A stretch of 57,088 bases of DNA, taken from positions 1 to 57,088 of the IMG/VR virus record IMGVR_UViG_3300037261_000179; one strand, given 5' to 3'. Shown in pieces: positions 21,297 to 45,353 of this stretch (its first letter is position 1; every line of letters starts with the position of its first letter). Source of the DNA: a virus. The translations under genes and the position numbers were made by a program. The notes under the pieces are model-generated. The model was not told the DNA's origin. It searched no databases and was given only the letters and a program-made list of their open reading frames with translations.

Positions 21297-21336
21297 TACT
21301 TGACGAAATTCAAGTTTGACGGAAGCTGGCTTCACC
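21297..21336 (+). promoter_or_regulatory. Candidate promoter region for Ig-domain genes
   Basis: TATAAT at 21292-21297 lies at the end of the resolvase gene, and TTGACG occurs twice just after (21300-21305 and 21316-21321). The hexamers are not at consensus spacing from each other, so which acts is unclear. CTTCACC precedes the ATG; no Shine-Dalgarno. Confidence 0.35.
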
Positions 21337-22035
21337 ATGAAACAACTTCCCTTCGCAGTCATCTACGGCGGCACTCTGAATCCGAATGTCGTCCTGTCTT
21401 CGACCAACACCATCATCGCCGGTACCGTCACGGCCATCAACCTGGCCATCGCCGAGCTGAACGCCAATTTCGCCAACTACGGGTACGCTGCTACCCCCGC
21501 GCTTCCGACCATCCCCGCCATTCCGACCCCGGGCAGTCTGGCCCCGAACGGTATCGCCTACCTGCAGAGCCAAGTCCCCGGCGGCGTCACCTGCGGGCCC
21601 TCGACCAGCTATTTGCTGATCGACGCGTTCCTTTCGGTCGGGTACGCCGATCCTTCCGGCGATCTCGACCGCCTCACTTCCGAGCAAACGGTGGCAAATT
21701 TGCTCATTGCCCGCGCGGTGCTCAGCACTGCCGCCGCCGTGGCTATCACGGTCCAGCCGACCAACCAAACGATTGCCCACAACGCGGCCGGAGCTATCGC
21801 CCTAACCGCCACCGGTACCGGTCGTACCTACGAATGGTACATTCAGCTGCTTGGTACCTCCGCTTTCCAGCGCGTCACCGATGCCGGTCCATTCACCACT
21901 TCTGCCACCGCATCCCTCACGATCACGAATCCGGTCTTGGCTACCTACAACGGCTCCAAGTTCATCTGTCTCGTGCGTAGCGCTTCTGGCGGCCAGGTCC
22001 TCGGATCAACCGTCGTCACCCTCACCGTCTCGTAA
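21337..22035 (+). CDS. Ig-like domain protein, candidate virion decoration protein (paralog 1)
   Basis: 232 aa. A shared N-terminal domain (MKQLPFAVIYGGTLNPNVVL, GPSTSYLLIDAFLSVGYADP) is followed by an Ig-like beta-sandwich at about residues 140-232 (ITVQPTNQTIAHN, YEWYIQ, ASLTITNPVLATYNGSKFIC). Ig-like domains are common on phage capsid and tail surface proteins, where they bind carbohydrate or cells weakly. No signal peptide. It is encoded on the strand opposite all other structural genes. Next to a paralog. Confidence 0.6.
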   Translation: MKQLPFAVIYGGTLNPNVVLSSTNTIIAGTVTAINLAIAELNANFANYGYAATPALPTIPAIPTPGSLAPNGIAYLQSQVPGGVTCGPSTSYLLIDAFLSVGYADPSGDLDRLTSEQTVANLLIARAVLSTAAAVAITVQPTNQTIAHNAAGAIALTATGTGRTYEWYIQLLGTSAFQRVTDAGPFTTSATASLTITNPVLATYNGSKFICLVRSASGGQVLGSTVVTLTVS

Positions 22036-22064
22036 GGCCCTTTGGCAGTTCAAAATTTTCCACC

Positions 22065-22757
22065 ATGAAACTCCTCCCCTTCGCCGTCATTTATGGCGGC
22101 CTGCTCAACACCAACGTCATTCTGTCCTCGCTGAACAACGTTCACACCGCGACTGTCGCCCAGCTGGCGCTGCAGATTGCGGAGGTGAACACGAACTACA
22201 GCTTGTACGGGTTCAACGCTTCGCCGGCCATTCCGTCGCTGCCTGCAATCCCGACCATGACATATACGGCTCCCCAGGCCATCGCGTACTTCCAAAGTCA
22301 GCCCAACACCACGAGCTACAATCACGGCCCTTCGACCAGTTTCCTGCTGATCGACGCCGACACGGCGAACGGGTTTGATGACCCGAACAACGCCCTGAAC
22401 GGCATCCTCACCGACGCCAACTTGGTGGCGATTTCAGCGGCGGCGCGGGCACTTCGGGCAAACATCACGACCCAGCCCACCGCTGCGGTCACGATCGCGC
22501 ACAACGCGAGCGGTAACCTCGGTACTGTGGTTGCCAGTGGAGCGGGCAATACCTTTCAGTGGCAGTACCGGCTCCTAGGCACCGGGGCTTGGCTCAACGT
22601 ACCGGCCACCGGGCCTTTCTCCAATGTGACCACGGCGACTCTCACGATTGCCAATCCGGTATTGGTCACCTACGACCAAACCGTTTTCCGGTGCGTGGTG
22701 CAGAGCACAGGCTCCGGTCCGGTGTGCTCCTCCAGCAGCACCCTCACGGTCACGTAA
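22065..22757 (+). CDS. Ig-like domain protein, candidate virion decoration protein (paralog 2)
   Basis: 230 aa, clearly homologous along its whole length to the gene just upstream: MKLLPFAVIYGGLLNTNVIL, GPSTSFLLIDAD, ITTQPTAAVTIAHNASG, FQWQYRLLGTGAW, TLTIANPVLVTYDQTVFRCV. Same layout of N-terminal domain plus Ig-like domain at about 138-230. The TTTCCACC-ATG start lacks Shine-Dalgarno. A tandem duplication that has diverged, perhaps for different surface ligands. Ends before a hairpin at the convergence point. Confidence 0.6.
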   Translation: MKLLPFAVIYGGLLNTNVILSSLNNVHTATVAQLALQIAEVNTNYSLYGFNASPAIPSLPAIPTMTYTAPQAIAYFQSQPNTTSYNHGPSTSFLLIDADTANGFDDPNNALNGILTDANLVAISAAARALRANITTQPTAAVTIAHNASGNLGTVVASGAGNTFQWQYRLLGTGAWLNVPATGPFSNVTTATLTIANPVLVTYDQTVFRCVVQSTGSGPVCSSSSTLTVT

Positions 22758-31340: not shown

Positions 31341-32075
31341 TCAGGTCTGGGTATTCGCGTTAATCACATACTGGGGCAGCAGCGGGTGTGCGCTGTCGAG
31401 CATATGAAGGTACGTATCCAAGGAGTGAAACGCCGCGAGCTCGTCATCCGCTTCCTTGGTGGAGTCCACCCATAAGGTCGGACCAATGTGCTCATAGCAA
31501 AACAGCGGGTGGATGTCGAAAGGCACCTGCGGAACGAAGTCCGGTACATTGACAACCCGGACGAGCTGCAGTCCGCCGCTGAGCGCCCCTGCTACGAAAT
31601 CCGCATCCCCGACCCGGGGTCCCGCAAACGTGGCCAGAGCGCAGTTGGGCGTATCCACTGCCGCCATTGTAGCCAGGGCGGCACCAAGGCTGTGGCCAGT
31701 CACGATTACCGGCCGGGTTAGCGAGTATAGAAACACCCGCAGCGGCAAATTGCCGGCCTGCAGCGTCTGGTAGAGGTCAAGGAATCCACTGTGCACCCTC
31801 CCGGCTCCGAAAGGGCAGTCCACCGGGAGAGCTTCCGCATCCTTGACCCACTCCCAAAAGCCCTCCGTTCCCCGGATCGCACAAACCCAAGCGGAAAGCT
31901 CAGTATCAAAATAAACGACCCCGTACGGCTTCCGGCCGTCAGGGTCTGTCCCCCAAACAAGCGTGACCTGATTCGACGGCACAGCTACTGCCTCCGGAGA
32001 GGTATGAAATCCCGGCTGGTAGCACGCATTCACTGCGTTTCCCAGCCGGACCAGCTGTGCCGTGGAAAAAGTCAC
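31341..32075 (-). CDS. Class 3 lipase (alpha/beta hydrolase)
   Basis: 244 aa from GTG 32075, which overlaps the stop of the lipoprotein gene; an upstream in-frame ATG at 32111 lies inside that gene. Lipase_3 pattern: IRGTEGFWEWVKD near 68-79, nucleophile Ser129 in GHSLG, FAGPRVGD at 150-157, Asp179 in NVPDFVPQVP, His217 in AFHSLDTYL. The catalytic triad is complete. No signal peptide, so it would need a holin-type lesion or another route to reach lipid. Between a lipoprotein and an i-spanin-like gene, it may attack host membrane phospholipid during lysis. Phage class 3 lipases are uncommon. Confidence 0.8.
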   Translation of the reverse strand: MTFSTAQLVRLGNAVNACYQPGFHTSPEAVAVPSNQVTLVWGTDPDGRKPYGVVYFDTELSAWVCAIRGTEGFWEWVKDAEALPVDCPFGAGRVHSGFLDLYQTLQAGNLPLRVFLYSLTRPVIVTGHSLGAALATMAAVDTPNCALATFAGPRVGDADFVAGALSGGLQLVRVVNVPDFVPQVPFDIHPLFCYEHIGPTLWVDSTKEADDELAAFHSLDTYLHMLDSAHPLLPQYVINANTQT

Positions 32076-32539
32076 TTGGCAGGGGCAAGAACGGATTGCT
32101 GGCCGGACCAAAAATCAATCCCATGCTGGATACCCAGCGCAAAGTCGGTCAGGGCTGCTCCGACTATCGCCGTATTGGCGTTGGGCAGCGCACCCGTCAC
32201 CCCGGCATTGGCCTGAATGGCTGCGGAGATTAAAGAGCCGACTTGGTTGTACGCAGCGGCGTTCTTTGGGTCGGCCATAGCCGCGGCCTGCAGAGGCTGC
32301 AGTTCGGCGTTGAGCACGCCCATCTGGAAAGGGGTGATCTTTCCAGTAGCCAGCGTAGGCAAAGCGGCGGCGAGGTCCTGGAGACCTTTGAGGGTCGCCG
32401 GATTGTCACTGAGTTTCTTGGTGGCAAAAGCATTCCCCGCAAGGTAGTTTGCCGTGGCGATGTTTTGGGAGGGCGTGCCGCATCCGGCAACAAAAGCGAG
32501 CCCGAGGGCCGCGACGAGTAGAACGAGCATGTTTTTCAT
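32072..32539 (-). CDS. Lipoprotein, possible o-spanin or surface protein
   Basis: 155 aa. Signal peptide MKNMLVLLVAALGLAF with lipobox FVAGC (Cys20), so the mature protein is probably lipid-anchored. The mature part is Ala-rich and helical (LAAALPTLATGKITPFQMGV), unlike typical Pro-rich short o-spanins. Next to the lipase (GTGA overlap) and one gene from the i-spanin-like protein. An o-spanin or superinfection-exclusion role is inference. Confidence 0.6.
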   Translation of the reverse strand: MKNMLVLLVAALGLAFVAGCGTPSQNIATANYLAGNAFATKKLSDNPATLKGLQDLAAALPTLATGKITPFQMGVLNAELQPLQAAAMADPKNAAAYNQVGSLISAAIQANAGVTGALPNANTAIVGAALTDFALGIQHGIDFWSGQQSVLAPAK

Positions 32540-32551
32540 GTTTTCTGTATT

Positions 32552-32860
32552 TTAGTTTTCGGACGAGACAGCAGGGGGCAAACCCTTGGTGTCAGAAATG
32601 TATTTGGCAGCTGCAGCCATCGTGTGGATGATCATTTGAGCAATCGCTGTTTTCCAGCCCATTCCCATCCCACGGGTGGCGTCGTTGATCACCGGGATAT
32701 TCGAGACCATGACTTCAACACCGTTCGTGCTAACCATGGTCGTGAATGCTGTTGCCGCCGCTACCGCCACCGAGCTCCACAGCCCCAAGCCCCAAGCCCG
32801 CCAGTCAAGATACTTTTTCGGATCGCTGCAAAGGGCCGCAGTTGTCGCAACGGGGTTCAT
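32552..32860 (-). CDS. Holin-like small membrane protein
   Basis: 102 aa from the Met at 32860 (context TTTTCC-ATG), not the longer in-frame start at 33040, which overlaps the upstream gene. A hydrophobic segment at about residues 24-44 (GLGLWSSVAVAAATAFTTMV) and a second weaker helix (TAIAQMIIHTMAAAAKYI) give one or two membrane passes. First gene of the lysis-type cluster, which fits a holin. The sequence family is not recognised. Confidence 0.45.
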   Translation of the reverse strand: MNPVATTAALCSDPKKYLDWRAWGLGLWSSVAVAAATAFTTMVSTNGVEVMVSNIPVINDATRGMGMGWKTAIAQMIIHTMAAAAKYISDTKGLPPAVSSEN

Positions 32861-32949: not shown

Positions 32950-34497
32950 TTATAGATTGTTCCTGGGCATGCTGGAAACTCCGCCGCCTCCACCCCCGCC
33001 GGTATTTTGGTATGCACCTGCCCCGTAGGGAACCGTCCAAGTAGCATCGGCCAAATCTGTCGTGAAGTAGGCCGAATTATTCACACCAGCCGCAATAACT
33101 GGCGATCCGGAATTTGGTTGATACGTCCCGCTTAAGTTCGGATTACTGACATTGAAATTTGCATCAAAGGCCGCTCCAAGCGCCTGCCAGCCGGCAATGT
33201 TGTAGAACACGCCGGCGGAGGTCGAACTCCATGCAAATTGACTTCCACCGCTCAGCCCGTAGCCAAAATTATTCGTTCCGTTGTAGACGACGGACGCATT
33301 GTACTGAACGATAACTTGGGTCGTTAGCCCGCTTGAAACGTTGTTGTTGACGTAATAGGTGTCACCTCCGCTTATGTCGATCATCGCCCCCGAGCCAACG
33401 CCGACCGCCGTATTATTGTAGACGCGAAATACCCCACCAATCGACGGGTAAGAATTCAAATACATGCAGCCGTTATTCGGTGCACCGCTGGAATCGACCA
33501 AGAAAAGATTGTCGTAAATCAACGCATCCTTGACCTGATACTGGATGAAGAGGCCAGTCGTGGCGTTCGCTCCGAAGCCCGGACCAATGACGTTGTGATC
33601 GTAAGTCACATTCTGCGCGTAGCCGGTGGACGGCAAATAACAGAAGGTGAAAAAGCCATCATGGTGCGAGCTGTCAATCGAGTCGTCCCAATTTTTCCAA
33701 TCATGGAAATAGCAGTGGTGGACGTGCATCCCTGAGAGAGTGGACGTGTTGTAGTGATTCCCCGCCCATCCGCAAATGTTGGTATTGTACGCCGTGCAAT
33801 AACTGTACTCCAAGTTCGTCGTGGTATTGTAGTCGATGTCGAAGCCATTGCCGCAATCTGAGAAAACGCAGTTCGTCACCAGGTCATTCCCATAGGAAGA
33901 GAGACCGCCATAATAAAGCAGGTGCACCGCGCTCGCGAGCGTGATCCCCGCCGGCGGATCATTCTGCGCCCGGACGTAAAGGTTTTTAACCACTAGATTC
34001 TTGATTATGATGTTTGAGCTACCAGCCATCCATATTCCGACAGAGTCCGATTGATGGGCCAGGCCGGTCCCGTTGGCCGTGTTTTGAATGAACCCGTTTG
34101 ACGTACCTGTCGCGCCATACCCGCCGATCATTCCCGTCGCCCCGCCGTCGATGGTGATATAGGACAGGTCCGCAAAGCTGATTGCTCCATAAGGACTCGG
34201 CCAGAGCGGGCTAGTGAAATTCGCCCCGGAGTCAAAAAGGATCGTAACCGGATTGCCCGAAGTCCCGCCGGCTTGTGGGGAAAAATTTGATGTGATCGTC
34301 CCTACGACATGGATCGTGTCCCCAGGGCTAACTTTTCCAGCGCCCGCGCCCCAGTTCGATGGGTTGTTTGCTTCGGTGACGCTCCATGGATTCCCGATTG
34401 TGCCATTGTGCGAACCGCTGCCAGACTGGGTGAAGTACAGGTCTTCGGCTTGTAATGTAACAAGCAGCGCGAAAAAACTAATTAAATATCTCAGCAT
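32950..34497 (-). CDS. Signal-peptide-bearing beta-helix protein (tailspike-like)
   Basis: 515 aa. Begins MLRYLISFFALLVTLQA, a signal peptide with likely cleavage after LQA. The body is a run of short strands with N/G/S turns typical of right-handed parallel beta-helices (SNIIIKNLVVKNLYV, NVTYDHNVIGPGFG, GVFRVYNNTAVGVGSG), as in pectate-lyase-like tailspikes and surface polysaccharide hydrolases. A poly-Gly stretch (about 500-507) precedes the short C-terminus. Last of six fibre-like genes; five have signal peptides. Could be a secreted polysaccharide-active enzyme or an exported spike. Confidence 0.6.
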   Translation of the reverse strand: MLRYLISFFALLVTLQAEDLYFTQSGSGSHNGTIGNPWSVTEANNPSNWGAGAGKVSPGDTIHVVGTITSNFSPQAGGTSGNPVTILFDSGANFTSPLWPSPYGAISFADLSYITIDGGATGMIGGYGATGTSNGFIQNTANGTGLAHQSDSVGIWMAGSSNIIIKNLVVKNLYVRAQNDPPAGITLASAVHLLYYGGLSSYGNDLVTNCVFSDCGNGFDIDYNTTTNLEYSYCTAYNTNICGWAGNHYNTSTLSGMHVHHCYFHDWKNWDDSIDSSHHDGFFTFCYLPSTGYAQNVTYDHNVIGPGFGANATTGLFIQYQVKDALIYDNLFLVDSSGAPNNGCMYLNSYPSIGGVFRVYNNTAVGVGSGAMIDISGGDTYYVNNNVSSGLTTQVIVQYNASVVYNGTNNFGYGLSGGSQFAWSSTSAGVFYNIAGWQALGAAFDANFNVSNPNLSGTYQPNSGSPVIAAGVNNSAYFTTDLADATWTVPYGAGAYQNTGGGGGGGVSSMPRNNL

Positions 34498-34498
34498 T

Positions 34499-35089
34499 TT
34501 AGTGAAATTTGAAGTTTACAGGACCGTAAGCGTGGTTGGCCCCACCCGTAGTGCCGGTGCTGCCACCGCCGGCGGCCCCGCCTGAATCGTAGCAGCCGTT
34601 ATCTACTGAGATAACTGCATTGGCCGTGACGCTCGTATCAGAATCGTAGAAGTGATCCACCCCCGTTGCCTCTACCGACATACAGCGATAGATCGTTGAG
34701 GCACTAACTGTGATTGGAGTGGCCAGAGTAACATAAACATAACCATCGGCATCCGCTGCATTACTCATGTTAATCGTGGCCGATCCATTCGTCACCGGCG
34801 CTCCAGCAGAGCCCGTATAAATTGCAACAAAATGCGAAGCTGAATCACCTGCTGCCTTATATCTGCCAACGGCTGTAATTACCTTGGACGCTCCTCCAAC
34901 CGTGAATTGAAATCCTGTGGCGAAGCCGCCGCCATCAGCCCTAAGTGTGCCGGGCGTCTGTCCGGTAATAACATGGGGATCGCCCCCACTGCCCGCCAAC
35001 ACCGTCTTGGAAGGGAAGCGCGCCGACTTGTAGGGCACCTGAGCGAAGATGCCGGTACAGAGGAAAATAAAAATGATTAGATTTTTCAT
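34499..35089 (-). CDS. Signal-peptide-bearing small fibre-like protein
   Basis: 196 aa from the Met at 35089 (MKNLIIFIFLCTGIFA, then QVPYKSARF), a signal peptide with cleavage likely after IFA. The mature part is beta-rich (FQFTVGGASKVITAVGRYKA, YVYVTLATPITVSASTIYRC) like a carbohydrate-binding or fibre tip jelly-roll, and ends in a Gly/Thr-rich tail and VNFKFH. It overlaps the upstream small gene (TAAAATG). Not recognised by family. Confidence 0.55.
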   Translation of the reverse strand: MKNLIIFIFLCTGIFAQVPYKSARFPSKTVLAGSGGDPHVITGQTPGTLRADGGGFATGFQFTVGGASKVITAVGRYKAAGDSASHFVAIYTGSAGAPVTNGSATINMSNAADADGYVYVTLATPITVSASTIYRCMSVEATGVDHFYDSDTSVTANAVISVDNGCYDSGGAAGGGSTGTTGGANHAYGPVNFKFH

Positions 35090-35090
35090 T

Positions 35091-35330
35091 TTATGCTCCC
35101 GCAGAATCCGCCCATGTACCAGAATACCCCGTACCCATCTTAGCGATCCAATGGGCACCATCGCTCTCCATCGTTAGGTAATCACCAACTGCGCTTGTTG
35201 TATCTTGCAGGTAGTGATTGGCAGTCAGAGCGGTTGCGCCGTTGTAGGGCAGTTCAGCGTAGCCGGGGACTAGGTTGCCAGTAATCATTTTAAAGAGTGC
35301 GTCGGCGAGTGCTTGTTGGCCGGGGGTCAT
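35091..35330 (-). CDS. Small fibre-associated protein (79 aa)
   Basis: MTPGQQALADALFKMITGNL, then YAELPYNGATALTANHYLQD and ESDGAHWIAKMGTGYSGTWA. The only member of the six-gene fibre cassette without a signal peptide. The aromatic/Gly-rich C-terminus resembles fibre tips or chaperone-like tags. Function unknown. Confidence 0.45.
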   Translation of the reverse strand: MTPGQQALADALFKMITGNLVPGYAELPYNGATALTANHYLQDTTSAVGDYLTMESDGAHWIAKMGTGYSGTWADSAGA

Positions 35331-35400
35331 GGGAGCGCGGCGGCGAAGATAGGGGCAAGGAATGTTTCATGAGCTGGAGAGGAATAGGAGCGGGCGCATG
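35331..35400. other. Short intergenic gap
   Basis: 70 bp between two fibre-like genes. I see no hairpin, promoter or convincing reading frame. Confidence 0.4.
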
Positions 35401-37260
35401 TCAGTTAATCTTGATTGCTGAAATGCTCGCCGCTGAAACCGTTACTGATCCGGCGGAAGGAGTCGCAGTGACGGTGCCTTGTATACCAATAGTATCAGTT
35501 GTCTTGAGGGTATTGTATAAAGCTGTGAGTGTGACCGTCGGCCCGTTTGTCGCCAGAGTGGTCATTACCGGAATCTGGTCGCCGAAAATACTGCCGGACA
35601 AGTCGGCAGCCGTGTTATTCGTTCGGCGCAGTTTGTAATTCACGGAGGATGCCGTGGCATAGGTTGCGCCCACATAGCTCGTCTGAAGTGTGGCGGTGAT
35701 CAAGTATGTGCCAACTTCAGTCAGTGTTACGCTTGGACTGGTAGTGCCAAAAGTGACCGTGCCATAAGACCCCGTCAGGGTGTATGCCGTGCCCCCGGCA
35801 ACTTTGGTGTATGACGTTCCCGTTGCTATAGTTGATCCTGCCGCCATTGGTCCGGCCAGCAGCAAATTGGGACAACCTTTAAGACTGTAGATATTATTCC
35901 CCCCTGATGCCGAATCGTCAAACGCCGTATTGACGCAGTTTAAGAAAAACACCCCATTGCCGTTGCCGTATATTAGCGGGTACCAACCATTCTGTCCGGT
36001 ATTTGGATCGCTAAAATTGCAATTAAGAAAATAGAAATACTGGACGTTGGTATTAGTGAGGTCGCCAAAAGATATGGCGCCGGTAGCGGTCTTTACCGCC
36101 CAACAATTATTCAATACCACAACACCGCCGTTTGTTTTGGAGCTCAGGTCGCCAGCTGCACCAATTCCACAATTATTAATGGCAATAAAGTTTCCCACAT
36201 TGGAGGAACCACAGCTTAATTGACCAATGTTATTAATATCCTGCAATAAAATCGTCGGCATTTTGCCGGAGGACGTTGTCCCGATTTGTACGGCGGCATA
36301 GGCAAAGTTTATCAGGGATATGGCGTTGGCCGAAGCATCGACTGATTTAAAATCAGTCTGAAAATCTAATGCGGAGTTGGCATCACCAATCACTGTGATA
36401 GAAACCGGTCCGGTCATTCCAGTACCGACGGTCTTTTCAACGAACCAAACCGCCGCACCGCGAATATTAATAACGTGCGTGGTAGTTGAAGTGTTAGCAA
36501 AATTGAGCCTAAGCTGATACTGATTTCCAAGGGTAGTAGGTCCATCGTTAGCACTACCGTAGGCTCCCGATCCCCAGCCACAGATATAGATAAATTCATT
36601 CCAGCCCGTATTGGGCAAATCCATTTGGAAATAGCTGCCTTCGTTTGTGCCCGGTGTATCCAGAATAAAAATTGATCCAGCCGCGATGGATGAGGCATTG
36701 ACCGCATTGTAAGCAGCCAGCGGTGTTTTGAAGGATAAAAACGGGTTGCCAAGCACGGCAGTAGAGTCGTTGCCGTATTGATTGGAAAGATAGGCCACTA
36801 TTGCATTGTTTGTGATCGGAAGTGCTGCCCCCTGCTGCACGCCGACGACGGTGTAGGGGACGCCGGTGCCGGTGGGGGTGGGAGTAAAGGCCGCAGTACC
36901 CAACGTTCCTCCCGCTCCTATGTTAAGCGTACTCGCGTCCGTACCAGCAAGGGTCAGCGTATTTGAAAATGTCAGCGTCTTCGCGGCTGCTCCTGTCAAA
37001 GTAAAGCTACCGGCCGTAAAGGTGTTTCCATTGTATGTCGTGCTTGCCAGATTTTTGGTTGTCTTGTTGAAAGTAAACGTGGAATCTGCGGCGAAAGCCC
37101 CGGTATCGTTGAACTGAACCTGCGTACTGGACCCGCCGGGCGTACCACTACCCCCGCCCCCTGCCGACACAGATCCGATCGAAGCTGCGCCACCAGGATT
37201 TGACACACCGTCTCCAAACGCCAGCAACGGCAGAAATAAAAGTAAGAATAGCTTTTTCAT
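35401..37260 (-). CDS. Signal-peptide-bearing tail fibre/spike with C1q-like end
   Basis: 619 aa. N-terminus MKKLFLLLFLPLLAFGDG is a strong signal peptide (cleavage likely after AFG). Then tail-fibre-like repeats (VQFNDTGAFAADSTFTFNKT, NGNTFTAGSFTLTGAAAKTL shared with the 1566-aa protein), a beta-helix region (about 170-460, NVQYFYFLNCNF, GVFFLNCVNTAF), and a C-terminal jelly-roll of C1q/TNF style at about 490-619 (EVGTYLITATLQ, NYKLRRTNNTA, DTIGIQGTV). Domain make-up is that of a receptor-binding fibre. No in-frame Met close after the signal peptide allows it to be skipped. Confidence 0.6.
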   Translation of the reverse strand: MKKLFLLLFLPLLAFGDGVSNPGGAASIGSVSAGGGGSGTPGGSSTQVQFNDTGAFAADSTFTFNKTTKNLASTTYNGNTFTAGSFTLTGAAAKTLTFSNTLTLAGTDASTLNIGAGGTLGTAAFTPTPTGTGVPYTVVGVQQGAALPITNNAIVAYLSNQYGNDSTAVLGNPFLSFKTPLAAYNAVNASSIAAGSIFILDTPGTNEGSYFQMDLPNTGWNEFIYICGWGSGAYGSANDGPTTLGNQYQLRLNFANTSTTTHVINIRGAAVWFVEKTVGTGMTGPVSITVIGDANSALDFQTDFKSVDASANAISLINFAYAAVQIGTTSSGKMPTILLQDINNIGQLSCGSSNVGNFIAINNCGIGAAGDLSSKTNGGVVVLNNCWAVKTATGAISFGDLTNTNVQYFYFLNCNFSDPNTGQNGWYPLIYGNGNGVFFLNCVNTAFDDSASGGNNIYSLKGCPNLLLAGPMAAGSTIATGTSYTKVAGGTAYTLTGSYGTVTFGTTSPSVTLTEVGTYLITATLQTSYVGATYATASSVNYKLRRTNNTAADLSGSIFGDQIPVMTTLATNGPTVTLTALYNTLKTTDTIGIQGTVTATPSAGSVTVSAASISAIKIN

Positions 37261-37646
37261 TTGGAAACGGAGTCGTCGGTCGTGATGTCGAGAGTGACGG
37301 AGCCCCCGGCGGAGATGGCCACGTATGGTTTGGAACTCGCCCCCACGCCGTTAGGGAAAGTTTTAACCCATGCCGTACCCGCTTTTAGCAGGTAGCCTGT
37401 CGTTGTGGTCGGATCGGTGCCGGTCGGAGTTGTGGAATTTGGAAAGGTACTCCCCCCGTCAAACGAAAGCCTCACATCCACCGAGCCCGTGTTCTGGACA
37501 GTCACCTGACGGCAATCCGGGCCAAAGGTGATAATAGGCGTCGCCGTTGAGAGCGTACCCGTCACCTGCTTGATGGTGGCGCTCGCGGAGAGCGTGAAGG
37601 CAAGGCACAAGGCCGCCGCAAGAAAGAATCGTAGTGTGTTTTTCAT
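37257..37646 (-). CDS. Signal-peptide-bearing small beta protein (129 aa)
   Basis: Start Met at 37646 (MKNTLRFFLAAALCLAFTLS, cleavage likely after ASA, classic A-x-A). Mature part is a small beta-sandwich (RQVTVQNTGSVDVRLSFDGG, GYLLKAGTAWVKTFPNGVGA, SAGGSVTLDI), resembling small phage fibre/tail-associated beta domains. Overlaps the start of the 619-aa gene. A periplasmic or surface role, or assembly with the neighbouring fibres, is inferred from context. Confidence 0.55.
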   Translation of the reverse strand: MKNTLRFFLAAALCLAFTLSASATIKQVTGTLSTATPIITFGPDCRQVTVQNTGSVDVRLSFDGGSTFPNSTTPTGTDPTTTTGYLLKAGTAWVKTFPNGVGASSKPYVAISAGGSVTLDITTDDSVSK

Positions 37647-37653
37647 GGTAAAA

Positions 37654-40600
37654 TTAGTTGTTGTTGAGCTTGATTGATGGCGTACCGTGGCCGCCATCCG
37701 CAATTGAAAGCCCGTCCATCGAAACGTTGTTAGTAACCTTGGTCGGAGCTGCAGTGTAATCCGTTATGATGTAATTGCCTCCGCTCGCTTGGCTGCTCAC
37801 CGTCCCAACAATCGCCGTGTTGGTCAGAGTCACCGCCGAATTGGGCACGAGCCGAACACTTTCGTTGTTCGATGCGGAAAGCAGGTTGATGCTGTTACCG
37901 ATCAGCTTAAGCCCATTCCATGCGGTAGGACTTGAAATGTCGGTTCCGGTGTCGATGCCGCGGCAGAACTGCGCCCGGCCCTGGCTGAGATGGCAGCCCT
38001 CAACTGTAAGGTTTTGCCAGTCGGCAATGACGAGGCAGGAACCGGACGCGATGTCGTCCACATCGGCCTTGATCGTGCAATCAGTTGAGTTCACGAACCA
38101 GATCCCGTGACCGCCGCCGACCGTGCTGGAATTGCGCACCTTGACGTTCAGCAATTTCACCCGCGTATTGCGCGTGCTGGAGTTTATCTCCCCACGGACA
38201 CCGGACTGTTTCACGGTGTCAATGTTCACGCCGTTGACGAGAACGTCAGTATCGCCCGCCAGCCAGATGCCTCGTCCCCAAGTAGAAGCTGGAGCGATAT
38301 TGCAGGCCGTGGTGTTAGCGATGCCGCTTGTCCCGGTGCCACCGCTGCCAAGATAGGTCACCGGTAGGGTCGTCACACTGCCCGAATGCGTCGCGCTCCC
38401 GCTCATGGTGAAGGTCTGATAGTTGGTCAGGCGCGTTGCAGACACGTTCACCACGACGATATTGCCCGAGACGAGACCGGAATAAACCGATGCCAGAGAA
38501 AAGCTGTTTGAATCAGTATCGTTTATATAAATGTTTGTGGCACTTGAGGGCGTAGCGTTGTTCAGGCGAAATGTTCCACTGGCCGGGCTGCTGGTCGTAG
38601 TCGTGCTGAAGGCGTAGGAAGGCAGATAATCGTTTGGGGAGCCACCCGCGCCGTTGGCCGTCGTCAGGCACTGCCCGTAATCCCGTGAACGGACAAGTCC
38701 GCCCTCCACGGTGATGTCAGTCGAAGTGTCGATCCCGTAACCGTCATCGTCCTGCCCCACCAGATGGCAGTTATAGACGGTGCCTCGAGTGCAACCGCTC
38801 AGGTGAATTCCATCGGCGTAACAAACGGAAGTACTGATATTGTTCAGACGCACATCAGTCGCATTGACTGCGAAAATGGCGAATTCCCCCGAATGTTTTA
38901 TTTCGACATCGTGCACGTAAGGAAAGGAGCCCTGTAACTGCAAGGCATGAGCTCCGGTCGTCCGCGCCGTGCATCCGCCATCGACCGTCAGATTGCAGAT
39001 TGTGATATGGTCGGTGGTCGTATCGGTCTTGATGGTCTGGCCTGGCGAGATGCCTTGCAAAATAGTTACACCAACTCCATCACCGCAGATCGTGGTATTA
39101 CTGTGCCCGGTGAACGTGACGAGGCCGGCGGTAGCTGTGTTGAACACATAGTTGCCGGCCGGGAAATAGAGAATTCCGTAGTTGGCAGGCAGCGCAGAAA
39201 CGGCAGCTTGGATCGCTGTGGTATCGTCTGAACCGTTGCCCAGCGCCCCATAGTCCTTCACGTTGATCGTCAGATTCAGATTTGCTTTCCCCGTGCGCTG
39301 ATGCGCGAGTGTGTCAAAGGCAAGAGTATCGAGGAATTTGACAGAGAAAATTGGATTCCCAGAACTCGAGGTAAGCGAGATTGTTTCCGTGGTCCCGCCA
39401 ATTCCAAAGATCATATTTGGAGCAGCGCCGAAAGCACGGAGCGAAAACGAGCTTTTAGCATAGCTTCCACTTGCCCCGGAAGCATCCGTAAAAGAAAGTG
39501 TCCCCGTGTCCAGCTGGCTGGAGGTAGAAGTCACACCGATATGAATAGCCCCATTGATTGTCTCAGTACCGATAAACGTTTGGGAAGCATCCGTCCGCGC
39601 AATTGTCGCCGCCGCATCTGGGAAGGTGAAAGCTCGCACCGCCGTCAAGCCCGTCGCGGAAAAGAAAGCCGAGTTTGTCCCTCCATTCGCTGGGGGCAGC
39701 ACCCCTCCAACGTCAGTCGTCAGATTAATCTTAGCCAAGGAAGCCGGAGACGAAATCGCAATAGTCCCGTCTGCCGCCGCCCCTGTGTGCAAAACCTGCA
39801 CGAGAAAAGAAGTAGTCGTAACCGGGGCTGTTGAAGTGAGCGCCCCCGACGTGCCTAGGTAGTACTGTGTGTTTGCCGCCAAACTCGAAATTACATTCTC
39901 AAACCCACTCATGGTCACCGTGAACGGGTTTCCTGTCCCCGTTACCACGCCGTCAACAACCGCCGTGCCAGACGCAGCATTGTCTGATAAAACCCAAGCC
40001 GACCCATTGTTGAACACGCACTGGCCAACGGTGAAACTGTTGGCCTGCGACACGGCGCGGGTTACCGACGTGCCCGTACCACCCCCGCCACCGTTCCCAA
40101 GAGCGCTCACCACCTGAAAGTTGGTTCCATCATAAGCGACGACCACAACTTGCCCTGCACGAATATCATTCGCCGCCAAATCCGTATTTACCCCACCGAC
40201 CGCCTTTTTGAGAGTCTTGGCCCCGAGAGCATTGATATTCAAAGTCGAAGCCGACGTGTTGGCGTTGGCCGCCACAAAAGTATAGAGAGGCGTGCCCGTG
40301 GTATAAGTGGTGATCGCAGGAGCCAGCGTCATCACGTAGGTATTCGTGGAGCCTGAATCCGCCACGTACGTTGCTTGGTAGGAATCATCCGAAAGCATCC
40401 AACGGCTGTTCACCAGCTTCAATCTCGCGCTGTGGTTTCCTGCAGGCCCTGGCGTGTAAACTCCGCCCGCAATTGCCACATCCGGGTCCCCCTCTCGAAA
40501 GACACTCGCCCCTGAAAATGTCACCGTGGACGTTGCGTTGCACCCTTGGAAATAAAGCATAAAACTATCGCCATTCACCGCAGACGGAAGGGAAACACCT

Positions 40601-42420: not shown

Positions 42421-42936
42421 TCATGGGAAAATTATGAACCCGACTTGTCGCGTTCCGGCAGAGGGCAACGCACTCCCATCCACGTTGTATATCATAAATT
42501 GTGCCACCGTTTTAAGGGTCAGAGGGTTCGCCCAGTCGTACGCTGCCACCATGATGCTTGGCAGGCTATCTTGCGGCACACCAAGAGCGGCGGAAGGTTT
42601 AGACCCGAGCTTCATTCCTGAAATGTCCACTCCATAAAGGAAGGATGTGAGCCCGCTGGAGTTGAGGACTGCCATGTCCAATAGCAAAGAGTAGGCTTTT
42701 GGGGGAGGAGTGACAAAATTCGGAAACTGTACCACAGGGGTATTAGTCGCCCTGCCCCCACGCGTCACTGCCGCGGCCGGTGCTGCAGCTTGTGCTGTGC
42801 TGTAGACAGACCGAAGCGCCTGGGCCACTTCCCTGGACCACTTCTTTACAACACTCTCCACCTTGGCCGCGTCAGAACCTATTGGTACGCCCGCCGGGTC
42901 TGGATAATCATTCACCACCAATGGATTCAAGGACAT
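42421..42936 (-). CDS. Hypothetical tail protein (171 aa)
   Basis: MSLNPLVVNDYPDPAGVPIG then helix SVVKKWSREVAQALRSVY, Ala-rich segment, and a beta-rich half (TSFLYGVDISGMKLG, TRQVGFIIFP). No family recognised. Coupled to the 805-aa tail protein and last gene of the capsid-tail unit. Probably a virion component by position. Confidence 0.5.
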   Translation of the reverse strand: MSLNPLVVNDYPDPAGVPIGSDAAKVESVVKKWSREVAQALRSVYSTAQAAAPAAAVTRGGRATNTPVVQFPNFVTPPPKAYSLLLDMAVLNSSGLTSFLYGVDISGMKLGSKPSAALGVPQDSLPSIMVAAYDWANPLTLKTVAQFMIYNVDGSALPSAGTRQVGFIIFP

Positions 42937-45353
42937 CAGTACGTCCCCCCAAGTCGCCCCATGAGGTGCATCCGAGAAACTCTCCAGCCACAGCCTACTT
43001 GGCTACTGGAAACCCTGATGCGCATATACCGACCAGTCCGCCTGATATTCACTTTTGCAACCCGTTGCTCCCCACTTTCAATGGGTAAAACAACTGGGTT
43101 TGACCATACCAAATCATCCCCCAAATTCATCCGTGACCCAAGTTGAACTTCTATCACGTAAGGGTTCACCTGAACTGCCATCGCTACAGCTTCCAGCGCA
43201 ACAGTGAGCGTGTCGGAATACTTGACCGACAAAGGATCACCGTCGGAAAAATCCCCCGTCTCGTACAAGCAAGCCATCGCATTTCCATCCCGATCAAAAC
43301 CTTGGTTGAGAAGCGCGAGTGTCGGACGATCAACGGAATTGTTGTGCTGAAACCCGGCCACCGTAAAGTTCTGAGCGCCTGAGCTCAAAATATCCTCCCA
43401 AAGCGCGTCCACCGGCCAAGACACAGGAGCTGACCACGTTCCTCCTGCGAAAGCGAATGTCGGGTTTGGGCTGAGGTTCAGCCTGCCAAACGCCGTAATC
43501 CCGTGGAGAACCAGATTCGCATGGGCGCTCGGATCGTAGTCGTCCGTCGTGCATGAATCCTCCACGTAGTTGTAAATGAAAACTCGATAAGGTGCATCGT
43601 TTGCAGCCGTACCAGCCACCGGGTACGCAAACCACACTTCGAAATCCTTTTCGTTGTGGTATCCTACAATTTCATCGACCCGGGTCAGATCGAGCTCTGC
43701 GAATACCTCCACCGCATGCTGGCGCCCAACTGGCTGAAGTTGCGATCCTCCGATATAGCGGTAAATCTCCCGGTTTCCGAAAAGGAAGATTTGCCCGATC
43801 CCCACTTTCACAAAGGAGTACTTCCCGATCAAGCCTTCGTCGATTACCTCTGTTCGTAGAAAAAATACCCCCTGGTCAAGCCCAACGTACTGAATGGACT
43901 GGATCGACCGGTTTTTGAAAATGTACGCATAGTCCCCCAACGTTTCCACCCACCAAAGAGGACCGTTGATAAACGCCCCAGCGTTCACCAATTCCCCGGC
44001 CCCGTTGGCATCAACGGACAGGATTGTGGTACCGATCGGTACTACCGTGGTGGCTGGCGCCGCCCCCGTCAGCTGGCTCACCGTCCCCTTGAAAGCGAAA
44101 AGTTCCTGCAGCGTGCCACCCATCGCGCTTATGTCGATCGACCCCGACGCGTTGTGCAGGCTCACAAAAGGCTGGGGAACGATAAACTCCCCTGCAAAGT
44201 GGGTTGATAGCGAGGTACCACTATTCCCCGTGTATGCCAAATTCACTATCCCGTCGGCGTAGTCTATTCCTGTAACGATATAAACGTCATTGCCCGCAAA
44301 AAGGTTAGGCCCGATGGAAATGTGTGCCCCCAACCCAAAAGGAAAAAGCCCCTCCACTTGGATAGTCACGTTCCCGCCAGGTGCTGGAATGGTAAAATCC
44401 GCTGCCAACGTACAGGCATTTGTCCCCGGATCGAAAGCGTCAGAATTGACTGTAAGAATGATGCTCGGGTTGTTGCTGAAATAAACCATTCCTCCCGCCT
44501 TGTAGGGAATGAAATCACGGATGAAAACTTCCCGGTCCCCGCCGGCCGGAACTGTTTGCGGAAAGCCTGTAACGTTCCCCACCTGCCCGGTACTTGGAAG
44601 AACATCGGTCACGCTCAGATACGTAACGTACCCGTTCAGATCAAAACGCATGAACTGCCCGATGGCGAGCAGCGCCGCCGTGGAGGAATCCACGTATACC
44701 CACTCAGTCTTAACGCCTACCGCCGGGACCGAAAAAGTTTGCAATGTTTTGAGCAGCGCCGATGTGGCCGTCGCCCCGACCGGTATCCATTCAAACGCAT
44801 CCCCCGTTGCACACCATTTGAGGGTGCTACCTCCCCAGATCAAAACATAATCCCGAAATGTCGTCACGCCCTGCCATGCCAGCAAGGGATCAAGCCCAGG
44901 CAAAAGCTTAGCCGCGGCGCTCACTCCGTCCCAGTAAACCATGGGTGATCGGGGCTGGGCAAAAATCACCTTGTCGAAAAAACTTGTAGCAACGATCCTG
45001 CTCCGGGCATTGGCCAAATTCGAAAGATAGTCATAAAGCTGAGTAAGTACCACATGCTTCGGGTCAGACGGAGAAAAAAGGCTGTAGAGCTTTCGCTGCG
45101 TGCCGATGATCCCAACATTTTGGGACGGTTGGTAAAACTGCGTCTGGTAGATCAAATTCGCCGGGGACTCGAGATTGGGCGACTGGACCAAAGTGACAAA
45201 CCCCATGGCGTTCTTTGCCACCCCTTTCTCAAAACGAACATTCGACGCCACCGTGGCGGCGCGCGGATCAATCTCGTCTGGACTGATACGGGTAACCTGC
45301 CCCAGAGTCGGAGCCACAATCGCAACTTCGAATCCGTCTGAAGCACGGCGCAT
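42936..45353 (-). CDS. Tail/stabilisation protein (podovirus nozzle, gp12-like)
   Basis: 805 aa, beta-rich. The N-terminus (GQVTRISPDEIDPRAATVAS, NVRFEKGVAKNAMGFVTL) matches large podoviral tail proteins that wire the list of tail contacts (often annotated phage stabilisation protein or tail tubular protein B). Propeller-like repeats of GxxYYFS/IxSIQYVG type follow, ending in RTGRYMRIRVSS. Its place after the adaptor and collar genes fits the tail nozzle. Confidence 0.65.
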   Translation of the reverse strand: MRRASDGFEVAIVAPTLGQVTRISPDEIDPRAATVASNVRFEKGVAKNAMGFVTLVQSPNLESPANLIYQTQFYQPSQNVGIIGTQRKLYSLFSPSDPKHVVLTQLYDYLSNLANARSRIVATSFFDKVIFAQPRSPMVYWDGVSAAAKLLPGLDPLLAWQGVTTFRDYVLIWGGSTLKWCATGDAFEWIPVGATATSALLKTLQTFSVPAVGVKTEWVYVDSSTAALLAIGQFMRFDLNGYVTYLSVTDVLPSTGQVGNVTGFPQTVPAGGDREVFIRDFIPYKAGGMVYFSNNPSIILTVNSDAFDPGTNACTLAADFTIPAPGGNVTIQVEGLFPFGLGAHISIGPNLFAGNDVYIVTGIDYADGIVNLAYTGNSGTSLSTHFAGEFIVPQPFVSLHNASGSIDISAMGGTLQELFAFKGTVSQLTGAAPATTVVPIGTTILSVDANGAGELVNAGAFINGPLWWVETLGDYAYIFKNRSIQSIQYVGLDQGVFFLRTEVIDEGLIGKYSFVKVGIGQIFLFGNREIYRYIGGSQLQPVGRQHAVEVFAELDLTRVDEIVGYHNEKDFEVWFAYPVAGTAANDAPYRVFIYNYVEDSCTTDDYDPSAHANLVLHGITAFGRLNLSPNPTFAFAGGTWSAPVSWPVDALWEDILSSGAQNFTVAGFQHNNSVDRPTLALLNQGFDRDGNAMACLYETGDFSDGDPLSVKYSDTLTVALEAVAMAVQVNPYVIEVQLGSRMNLGDDLVWSNPVVLPIESGEQRVAKVNIRRTGRYMRIRVSSSQVGCGWRVSRMHLMGRLGGTY

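What the first reader, a model, noticed from the sequence alone, without database searches (positions are those of the whole stretch)
31341..32075. Class 3 lipase with intact triad in the lysis region, and no recognisable endolysin
Ser129 in GHSLG, Asp179 and His217 are all in place, and the gene lies between a lipoprotein and an i-spanin-like protein, next to a holin-like protein. I recognise no muramidase, amidase or endopeptidase anywhere in the window. Either the murein hydrolase is of an unrecognised type, or membrane-lipid hydrolysis contributes to a different lysis strategy. Phage lysis enzymes acting on lipid are known mainly as LysB mycolyl esterases in mycobacteriophages.
Basis: partly seen in the sequence, partly recalled or inferred. 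Interest (0 to 1): 0.68.

Follow-up and report, generated by a model that had tools for sequence, protein, structure and literature searches.

The report
Phage lysis cassette with lipase, no endolysin
This uncultured phage and at least four others carry a fat-splitting enzyme in the gene slot where phages of this kind normally keep a cell-wall-cutting lysin, and no known type of cell-wall-cutting enzyme could be recognised in them, which suggests a lysis module that attacks membranes and leaves open how the cell wall is opened.

Summary
Window 31341-32075(-) encodes a class 3 lipase: Pfam Lipase_3 E 2.6e-21; AF2 model pTM 0.83, best PDB matches phospholipase A1 and fungal lipases. Ser129, Asp179 and His217 are invariant in 15 phage relatives. 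The gene starts with GTG, overlaps the stop of a lipoprotein gene and has no signal peptide. No murein hydrolase was recognised in the window.
New: the same gene order (short hydrophobic protein, lipoprotein, lipase, TM+coil protein) recurs in four other viral genomes, with the fourth gene missing in G014. These include two complete relatives (G001, 127-nt end repeat; G011, 171/172-nt end overlap) and two phages whose virion genes differ, one with a contractile tail. The cassette is exchanged between phages: G001 and the window share 90% of the capsid protein but about 26-31% of the lipase, whereas G001's lipase is 63-66% identical to those of the unrelated phages. The lipase is under purifying selection (dN/dS about 0.13). 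Distant capsid relatives do carry recognisable endolysins (M15_4, GH108), found by the same scans.
Best reading: a lipolytic lysis module for diderm hosts. How murein is cut is unknown; a cryptic murein hydrolase is not excluded, because a capsid relative without the lipase (G012) also lacks a recognised one.

The parts
32552..32860 (-). 102-aa weakly hydrophobic protein in the holin position (ATG at 32860)
   Evidence: start; no TM segment above cut-off for the window copy, while G001 and G015 copies in the same position have predicted TM segments. No Pfam or PHROG match for the longer ORF.
32072..32539 (-). 155-aa lipoprotein (lipobox VAGC, Cys20), cassette member
   Evidence: hhalign to the G001/G014/G015 cassette lipoprotein profile: probability 93%, E 3.8e-7 (signal region contributes).
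31341..32075 (-). Class 3 lipase, 244 aa, Ser129-Asp179-His217, no signal peptide or lipobox
   Evidence: Pfam PF01764 E 2.6e-21; phrog_21992 esterase/lipase E 2.9e-19; PDB by sequence; model pLDDT 78, pTM 0.83, Foldseek to phospholipase A1 7x0d E 7e-14; triad invariant in 15.
30980..31339 (-). 119-aa protein with one N-terminal TM segment and a charged C-terminal part (i-spanin-like topology)
   Evidence: TM 20-38; positional counterparts in G001, G011, G015. Sequence similarity among them is very low.
30430..30975 (-). Flanking gene, not part of the cassette: citrate-synthase-like protein without two of three catalytic residues
   Evidence: Pfam PF00285 E 9e-4, 6hxp E 1.7e-4, conserved in L009-L011. 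No match in G011.

Best explanation
The gene is the enzyme of an exchangeable lysis cassette found in phages of diderm bacteria: short hydrophobic (holin-position) protein, lipoprotein, class 3 lipase, TM+coil protein. Proposed mechanism: the lipase has no export signal, so it accumulates in the cytoplasm late in infection. When the short membrane protein disrupts the inner membrane, the lipase gains access to membrane phospholipids and hydrolyses acyl esters. The lipoprotein and TM+coil proteins act as a spanin-like pair on the outer membrane, so that lipid hydrolysis and membrane linkage or fusion together remove the envelope. Shown here: a lipase fold with an intact triad, a conserved cassette order in five genomes, exchange between unrelated virions, purifying selection, and no recognised murein hydrolase. 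Inferred: late expression (long co-directional late array), substrate, release by the holin-position protein, and spanin roles. Not explained: how murein is cut. Either an unrecognised murein hydrolase is also encoded (more likely), or host autolysins do it after membrane damage.
For: Lipase fold and triad. Same gene order in the window, G001, G011 and G015, and without a TM+coil gene in G014. G001 complete by a 127-nt exact end repeat; G011 ends overlap 171/172 nt. Module exchange: MCP 90%, TerL 72% between window and G001 but lipase about 26-31%, while G001 lipase is 63-66% identical to G014 and G015, which share no capsid, portal or terminase match with the window; G014 has sheath- and baseplate-type proteins. 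dN 0.18, dS 1.40 for G014-G015 lipases. Lysin scans negative in lipase phages and positive in distant capsid relatives Mel-JY34, Tiera and CRP-810.
Against: No expression or activity data. G012, with 75% identical MCP and no lipase, also shows none of the tested lysin families, so lack of a recognised endolysin is not specific to lipase phages. The window's holin-position protein has no clear TM segment. The order lipoprotein-lipase-TM protein is not the usual i-spanin/o-spanin order. Other phages have class 3 lipases outside lysis regions (L003, near ribonucleotide reductase), or beside a normal holin + lysozyme (L031).
Confidence: 0.57

Rival explanations
1. A conventional endolysin role is filled by a murein hydrolase of an unrecognised family encoded elsewhere in the genome; the lipase is only an accessory that helps remove the outer membrane, like LysB beside LysA.
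For: G012 lacks both the lipase and any recognised lysin, so this clade may have a cryptic lysin. L031 has lipase, holin and GH24-type lysozyme side by side. Many late proteins have no family match. Mycobacteriophage LysB lies downstream of lysA (PMC6116114).
Against: No lysin-like domain in the scanned ORFs of the complete sister genome at Pfam E<=0.05 or PHROGs E<=0.01; Pfam finds lysins readily in distant relatives. Only sequence profiles were used, not profile-profile or structure searches of every unknown.
Confidence: 0.5
2. The lipase truly replaces the endolysin: membrane-lipid hydrolysis plus host autolysins lyse the cell without any phage murein hydrolase.
For: The lipase sits in the endolysin position of a conserved cassette; two complete genomes have no recognised lysin (and for single families).
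Against: Absence of recognition is not absence; G011 also has a 260-aa papain-like-looking protein upstream of the cassette of unknown role (no Pfam match).
Confidence: 0.15
3. The lipase is an auxiliary or moron gene, for example lipid recycling or superinfection exclusion, that happens to sit in a hypervariable late slot.
For: Class 3 lipases occur in unrelated phage contexts, including T4-like marine phages away from lysis genes. Flanking genes 29918-30975 look metabolic.
Against: The same four-gene order in separate lineages, with tight overlaps, argues for function with its neighbours. The citrate-synthase-like neighbour has no match in G011 while the cassette stays.
Confidence: 0.25

Closest known systems
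Class 3 lipases (Pfam PF01764; fungal lipases, plant phospholipase A1)
   Same: Alpha/beta hydrolase fold, GHSLG elbow, Ser-Asp-His order, Foldseek E 7e-14 to phospholipase A1.
   Different: Short (244 aa), no secretion signal, phage late gene in a lysis-type cassette.
Mycobacteriophage LysB (mycolylarabinogalactan esterase)
   Same: Serine lipolytic enzyme in a lysis cassette acting on an outer envelope layer (PMC6116114).
   Different: Different family: only a marginal match to a Gordonia phage Lysin B (E 0.04, TM 0.25). LysB accompanies an endolysin and acts in mycolic-acid hosts; here lipoprotein genes indicate an ordinary diderm host.
Canonical holin-endolysin-spanin cassettes of distant SU10-type capsid relatives (Mel-JY34, Tiera, CRP-810)
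   Same: Enzyme gene beside membrane-protein genes in the late array; homologous capsid, and portal where detected.
   Different: Their enzyme is an M15_4 peptidase or GH108 muramidase, here it is a lipase.
phrog_21992 esterase/lipase of phages
   Same: Both the window and G001 lipases match it (E 2.9e-19 and 1.4e-10).
   Different: The PHROG is annotated only as 'other'; no lysis link is given.

Membership tests
Class 3 lipase (PF01764) | Profile match over the curated cut-off | tested here: met
   76.4 bits against 22
Class 3 lipase (PF01764) | Ser in GXSXG, Asp and His in order, and the lipase fold | tested here: met
   Residues 129, 179, 217, invariant in 15, fold by model
Class 3 lipase (PF01764) | Acyl-ester hydrolase activity | not testable with these tools
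   needs an enzyme assay
LysB mycolyl esterase | Homology to LysB / cutinase-like fold | tested here: not met
   Best LysB match E 0.04, TM 0.25
LysB mycolyl esterase | Present next to lysA endolysin | tested here: not met
   No recognised endolysin in the window or G001
Canonical phage endolysin | Murein hydrolase domain | tested here: not met
   The gene is Lipase_3 only
Two-component spanin | Outer-membrane lipoprotein plus single-TM inner-membrane protein with coiled ectodomain | tested here: inconclusive
   Lipobox and single TM found; sequence too divergent, gene order atypical, coiled coil not formally tested
Holin | One to four TM segments, small size | tested here: inconclusive
   102 aa but no segment above cut-off in the window copy; TM segments in G001 and G015 copies

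The most novel reading that the evidence does not exclude
A class of tailed phages of diderm bacteria lyses its host with an exchangeable membrane-lipid-hydrolysing cassette in place of a murein-cutting endolysin.
Probability: 0.15. Interest if true: 0.88.

Novelty: new variant of a known kind. Interest (0 to 1): 0.64.

Why it matters
Double-stranded DNA phages are taught to need an endolysin. A conserved, exchangeable cassette with a phospholipase-like enzyme in that position, in complete genomes without a recognisable endolysin, makes a testable case for a lipolytic lysis step outside the mycobacteriophages. If a murein hydrolase is also present it must be of a new family; if not, the host's own autolysins may be exploited. 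Either answer is informative, and the enzyme could be of interest for attacking Gram-negative envelopes.

Tried and rejected
Single-protein scans of IMG/VR with the lipase and terminase found nothing; the capsid alignment of distant phages was too divergent to scan with. The citrate-synthase-like neighbour was the query that opened the relatives. The best phage-collection hit to the lipase (MT836410) was rejected: its frame order (VgrG-like protein, 697-aa lipase fusion, transporter-like ORF) looks like a bacterial T6SS locus, not a phage. A GH19 search was uninformative because no control rang. Single-sequence folding failed (pLDDT 33) and was replaced by an alignment-based model. The G011 papain-like-looking protein was tested as a possible lysin without any Pfam or PDB support. 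The bacterial genome scan found no lipase relatives, so the host could not be named. An SLT sub-threshold hit in G011 (12 bits) was treated as noise. Paper searches found no report of a class 3 lipase in a phage lysis cassette, but only the open-licence library was searched.

Full report
What is there. The ORF at 31341-32075 on the minus strand starts with GTG, overlaps the stop codon of the upstream lipoprotein gene and encodes 244 residues with Ser129 (GHSLG), Asp179 and His217 exactly as reported. It matches Pfam Lipase_3 with E 2.6e-21 and PHROG 21992 esterase/lipase with E 2.9e-19. By sequence it matches solved fungal lipases. A model from 15 phage relatives has pTM 0.83 and mean pLDDT 78; its best structural matches are plant phospholipase A1 and fungal lipases. 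Among viral models the best are class 3 lipases of giant viruses, with only a marginal LysB match. The nine invariant columns among the 15 phage lipases include all three catalytic residues. There is no signal peptide, lipobox or N-terminal TM segment.

Surroundings. The late genes run co-directionally from 56832 down to 22824. The lipase lies between a lipoprotein (32072-32539) and a TM+coil protein (30980-31339), with a 102-aa weakly hydrophobic protein upstream (32552-32860). Terminator-like sites in this stretch do not exceed chance (7 found, 7.0 expected), and promoter-like sites exceed it only slightly (6 found, 3.1 expected).

Is there an endolysin? Pfam scans of the late ORFs at E<=1 and of the other ORFs at E<=0.05, and PHROGs scans of most larger ORFs, show no murein hydrolase. 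The window has no end repeats, so it could be incomplete.

Relatives. The citrate-synthase-like neighbour led to G001 (IMGVR_UViG_3300043811_000231). G001 is syntenic (MCP 90%, TerL 72%) and carries an exact 127-nt end repeat, so it is a complete circular assembly. Sixty-eight of its unassigned ORFs were scanned: no lysin in Pfam at E<=0.05 or in PHROGs at E<=0.01 (25 of 27 families shown). A capsid scan brought G011 and its fragment-mate G013, with a Lipase_3 hit over the cut-off; G011's ends overlap 171 of 172 nt. A lipase scan brought G014 and G015.

A conserved cassette. In the window, G001, G011 and G015 the order is short hydrophobic protein, lipoprotein, lipase, TM+coil protein. G014 has the first three. 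G001, G014 and G015 lipoproteins are 68-84% identical, and the window's lipoprotein matches that profile at 93% probability, in a segment that includes the signal region. G011's lipoprotein is much shorter and was not shown to be homologous. The catalytic triad is kept in all five. G014 and G015 share no capsid, portal or terminase match with the window; G014 looks like a contractile-tailed phage by its Pfam matches. G001's lipase is 63-66% identical to theirs, but about 26-31% to the window's despite the 90% identical capsid. The cassette is therefore exchanged between phages. Between G014 and G015 lipases dN is 0.18 and dS 1.40, that is, purifying selection.

Controls. The Pfam scan recognises lysins in distant capsid relatives: M15_4 beside a GTA holin in Mel-JY34, and GH108 in Tiera and CRP-810. 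Single-family searches of the window and relatives for GH108, GH24, SLT, Amidase_2, CHAP and M23, and of the relatives for M15_4, find nothing convincing in lipase phages (the window itself was not in the M15_4 search). But G012, which has a 75% identical capsid and no lipase, and the more distant G002 and G003, also give nothing. Absence of a recognised lysin is therefore not specific to lipase phages, and a cryptic lysin remains possible. In L031 a related lipase lies just downstream of a holin-like gene and a lysozyme with GH24-type sequence, so lipases can also accompany an endolysin.

Interpretation. I favour a lipolytic lysis module (0.57). The enzyme accumulates in the cytoplasm, is freed when the inner membrane is disrupted, and degrades membrane phospholipids together with spanin-like partners. 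This works like LysB in role but is not LysB by family, and it lacks the partner endolysin. Which molecule cuts murein is the open question. Rival confidences overlap deliberately, because accessory lipase plus cryptic lysin is compatible with the cassette role.

Limits. All evidence is by sequence and model; expression, substrate and lysis were not tested. One search covered mainly ORFs up to 300 aa of G011, G014 and G015 and showed 25 of 28 families. The literature was searched only in an open-licence library.

Noticed in passing
window 30430-30975(-); L009 4319-4873; L010 3360-3929; L011 9959-10507: A citrate-synthase-like 181-aa protein, conserved in three other viral contigs with the motif GWGNSFFK, in which Asn replaces catalytic His320 and the Asp375 position is lost. 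It is always followed by a sulfotransferase/P-loop-like ORF. It looks like a repurposed phage pseudoenzyme family.
   Followed up: partly
window 29918-30544(-): P-loop/sulfotransferase-like protein (phrog_10855 'hydrolase', E 1.6e-10) paired with the citrate-synthase-like gene.
   Followed up: no
window 32950-37703(-); also L014 334-2634, L017 244-3159, L093 6720-12747, L100 632-5276: Several fibre- or beta-helix-like virion-type proteins begin with Sec-type signal sequences (for example MKKLFLLLFLPLLAFG), in this phage and in its relatives.
   Followed up: no
window 42936-45353(-); L092/L093; L094/L095: The gene for the 805-aa structural protein is split near residues 70-103 in relatives G011 and G012, with about 7-15 kb of other genes (including G011's lipase cassette) lying between the two parts.
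   Followed up: partly
window 22824-27713(-): 1629-aa late protein without Pfam match; residues about 680-750 are a shared segment found in otherwise unrelated phages L015 and L016.
   Followed up: partly
L093 5543-6325(-): 260-aa protein upstream of the G011 cassette with a papain-like Cys/His pattern by eye, no Pfam match, weak pro-cathepsin hit (E 0.17).
   Followed up: partly
L002 (MT836410.1): Record deposited as 'Bacteriophage sp.' looks like a bacterial T6SS locus (VgrG-like protein and large lipase fusion).
   Followed up: partly
window 21316-22757(+): Two tandem paralogous proteins with Ig-like C-termini (phrog_613 head protein) encoded at the end of the early strand.
   Followed up: no
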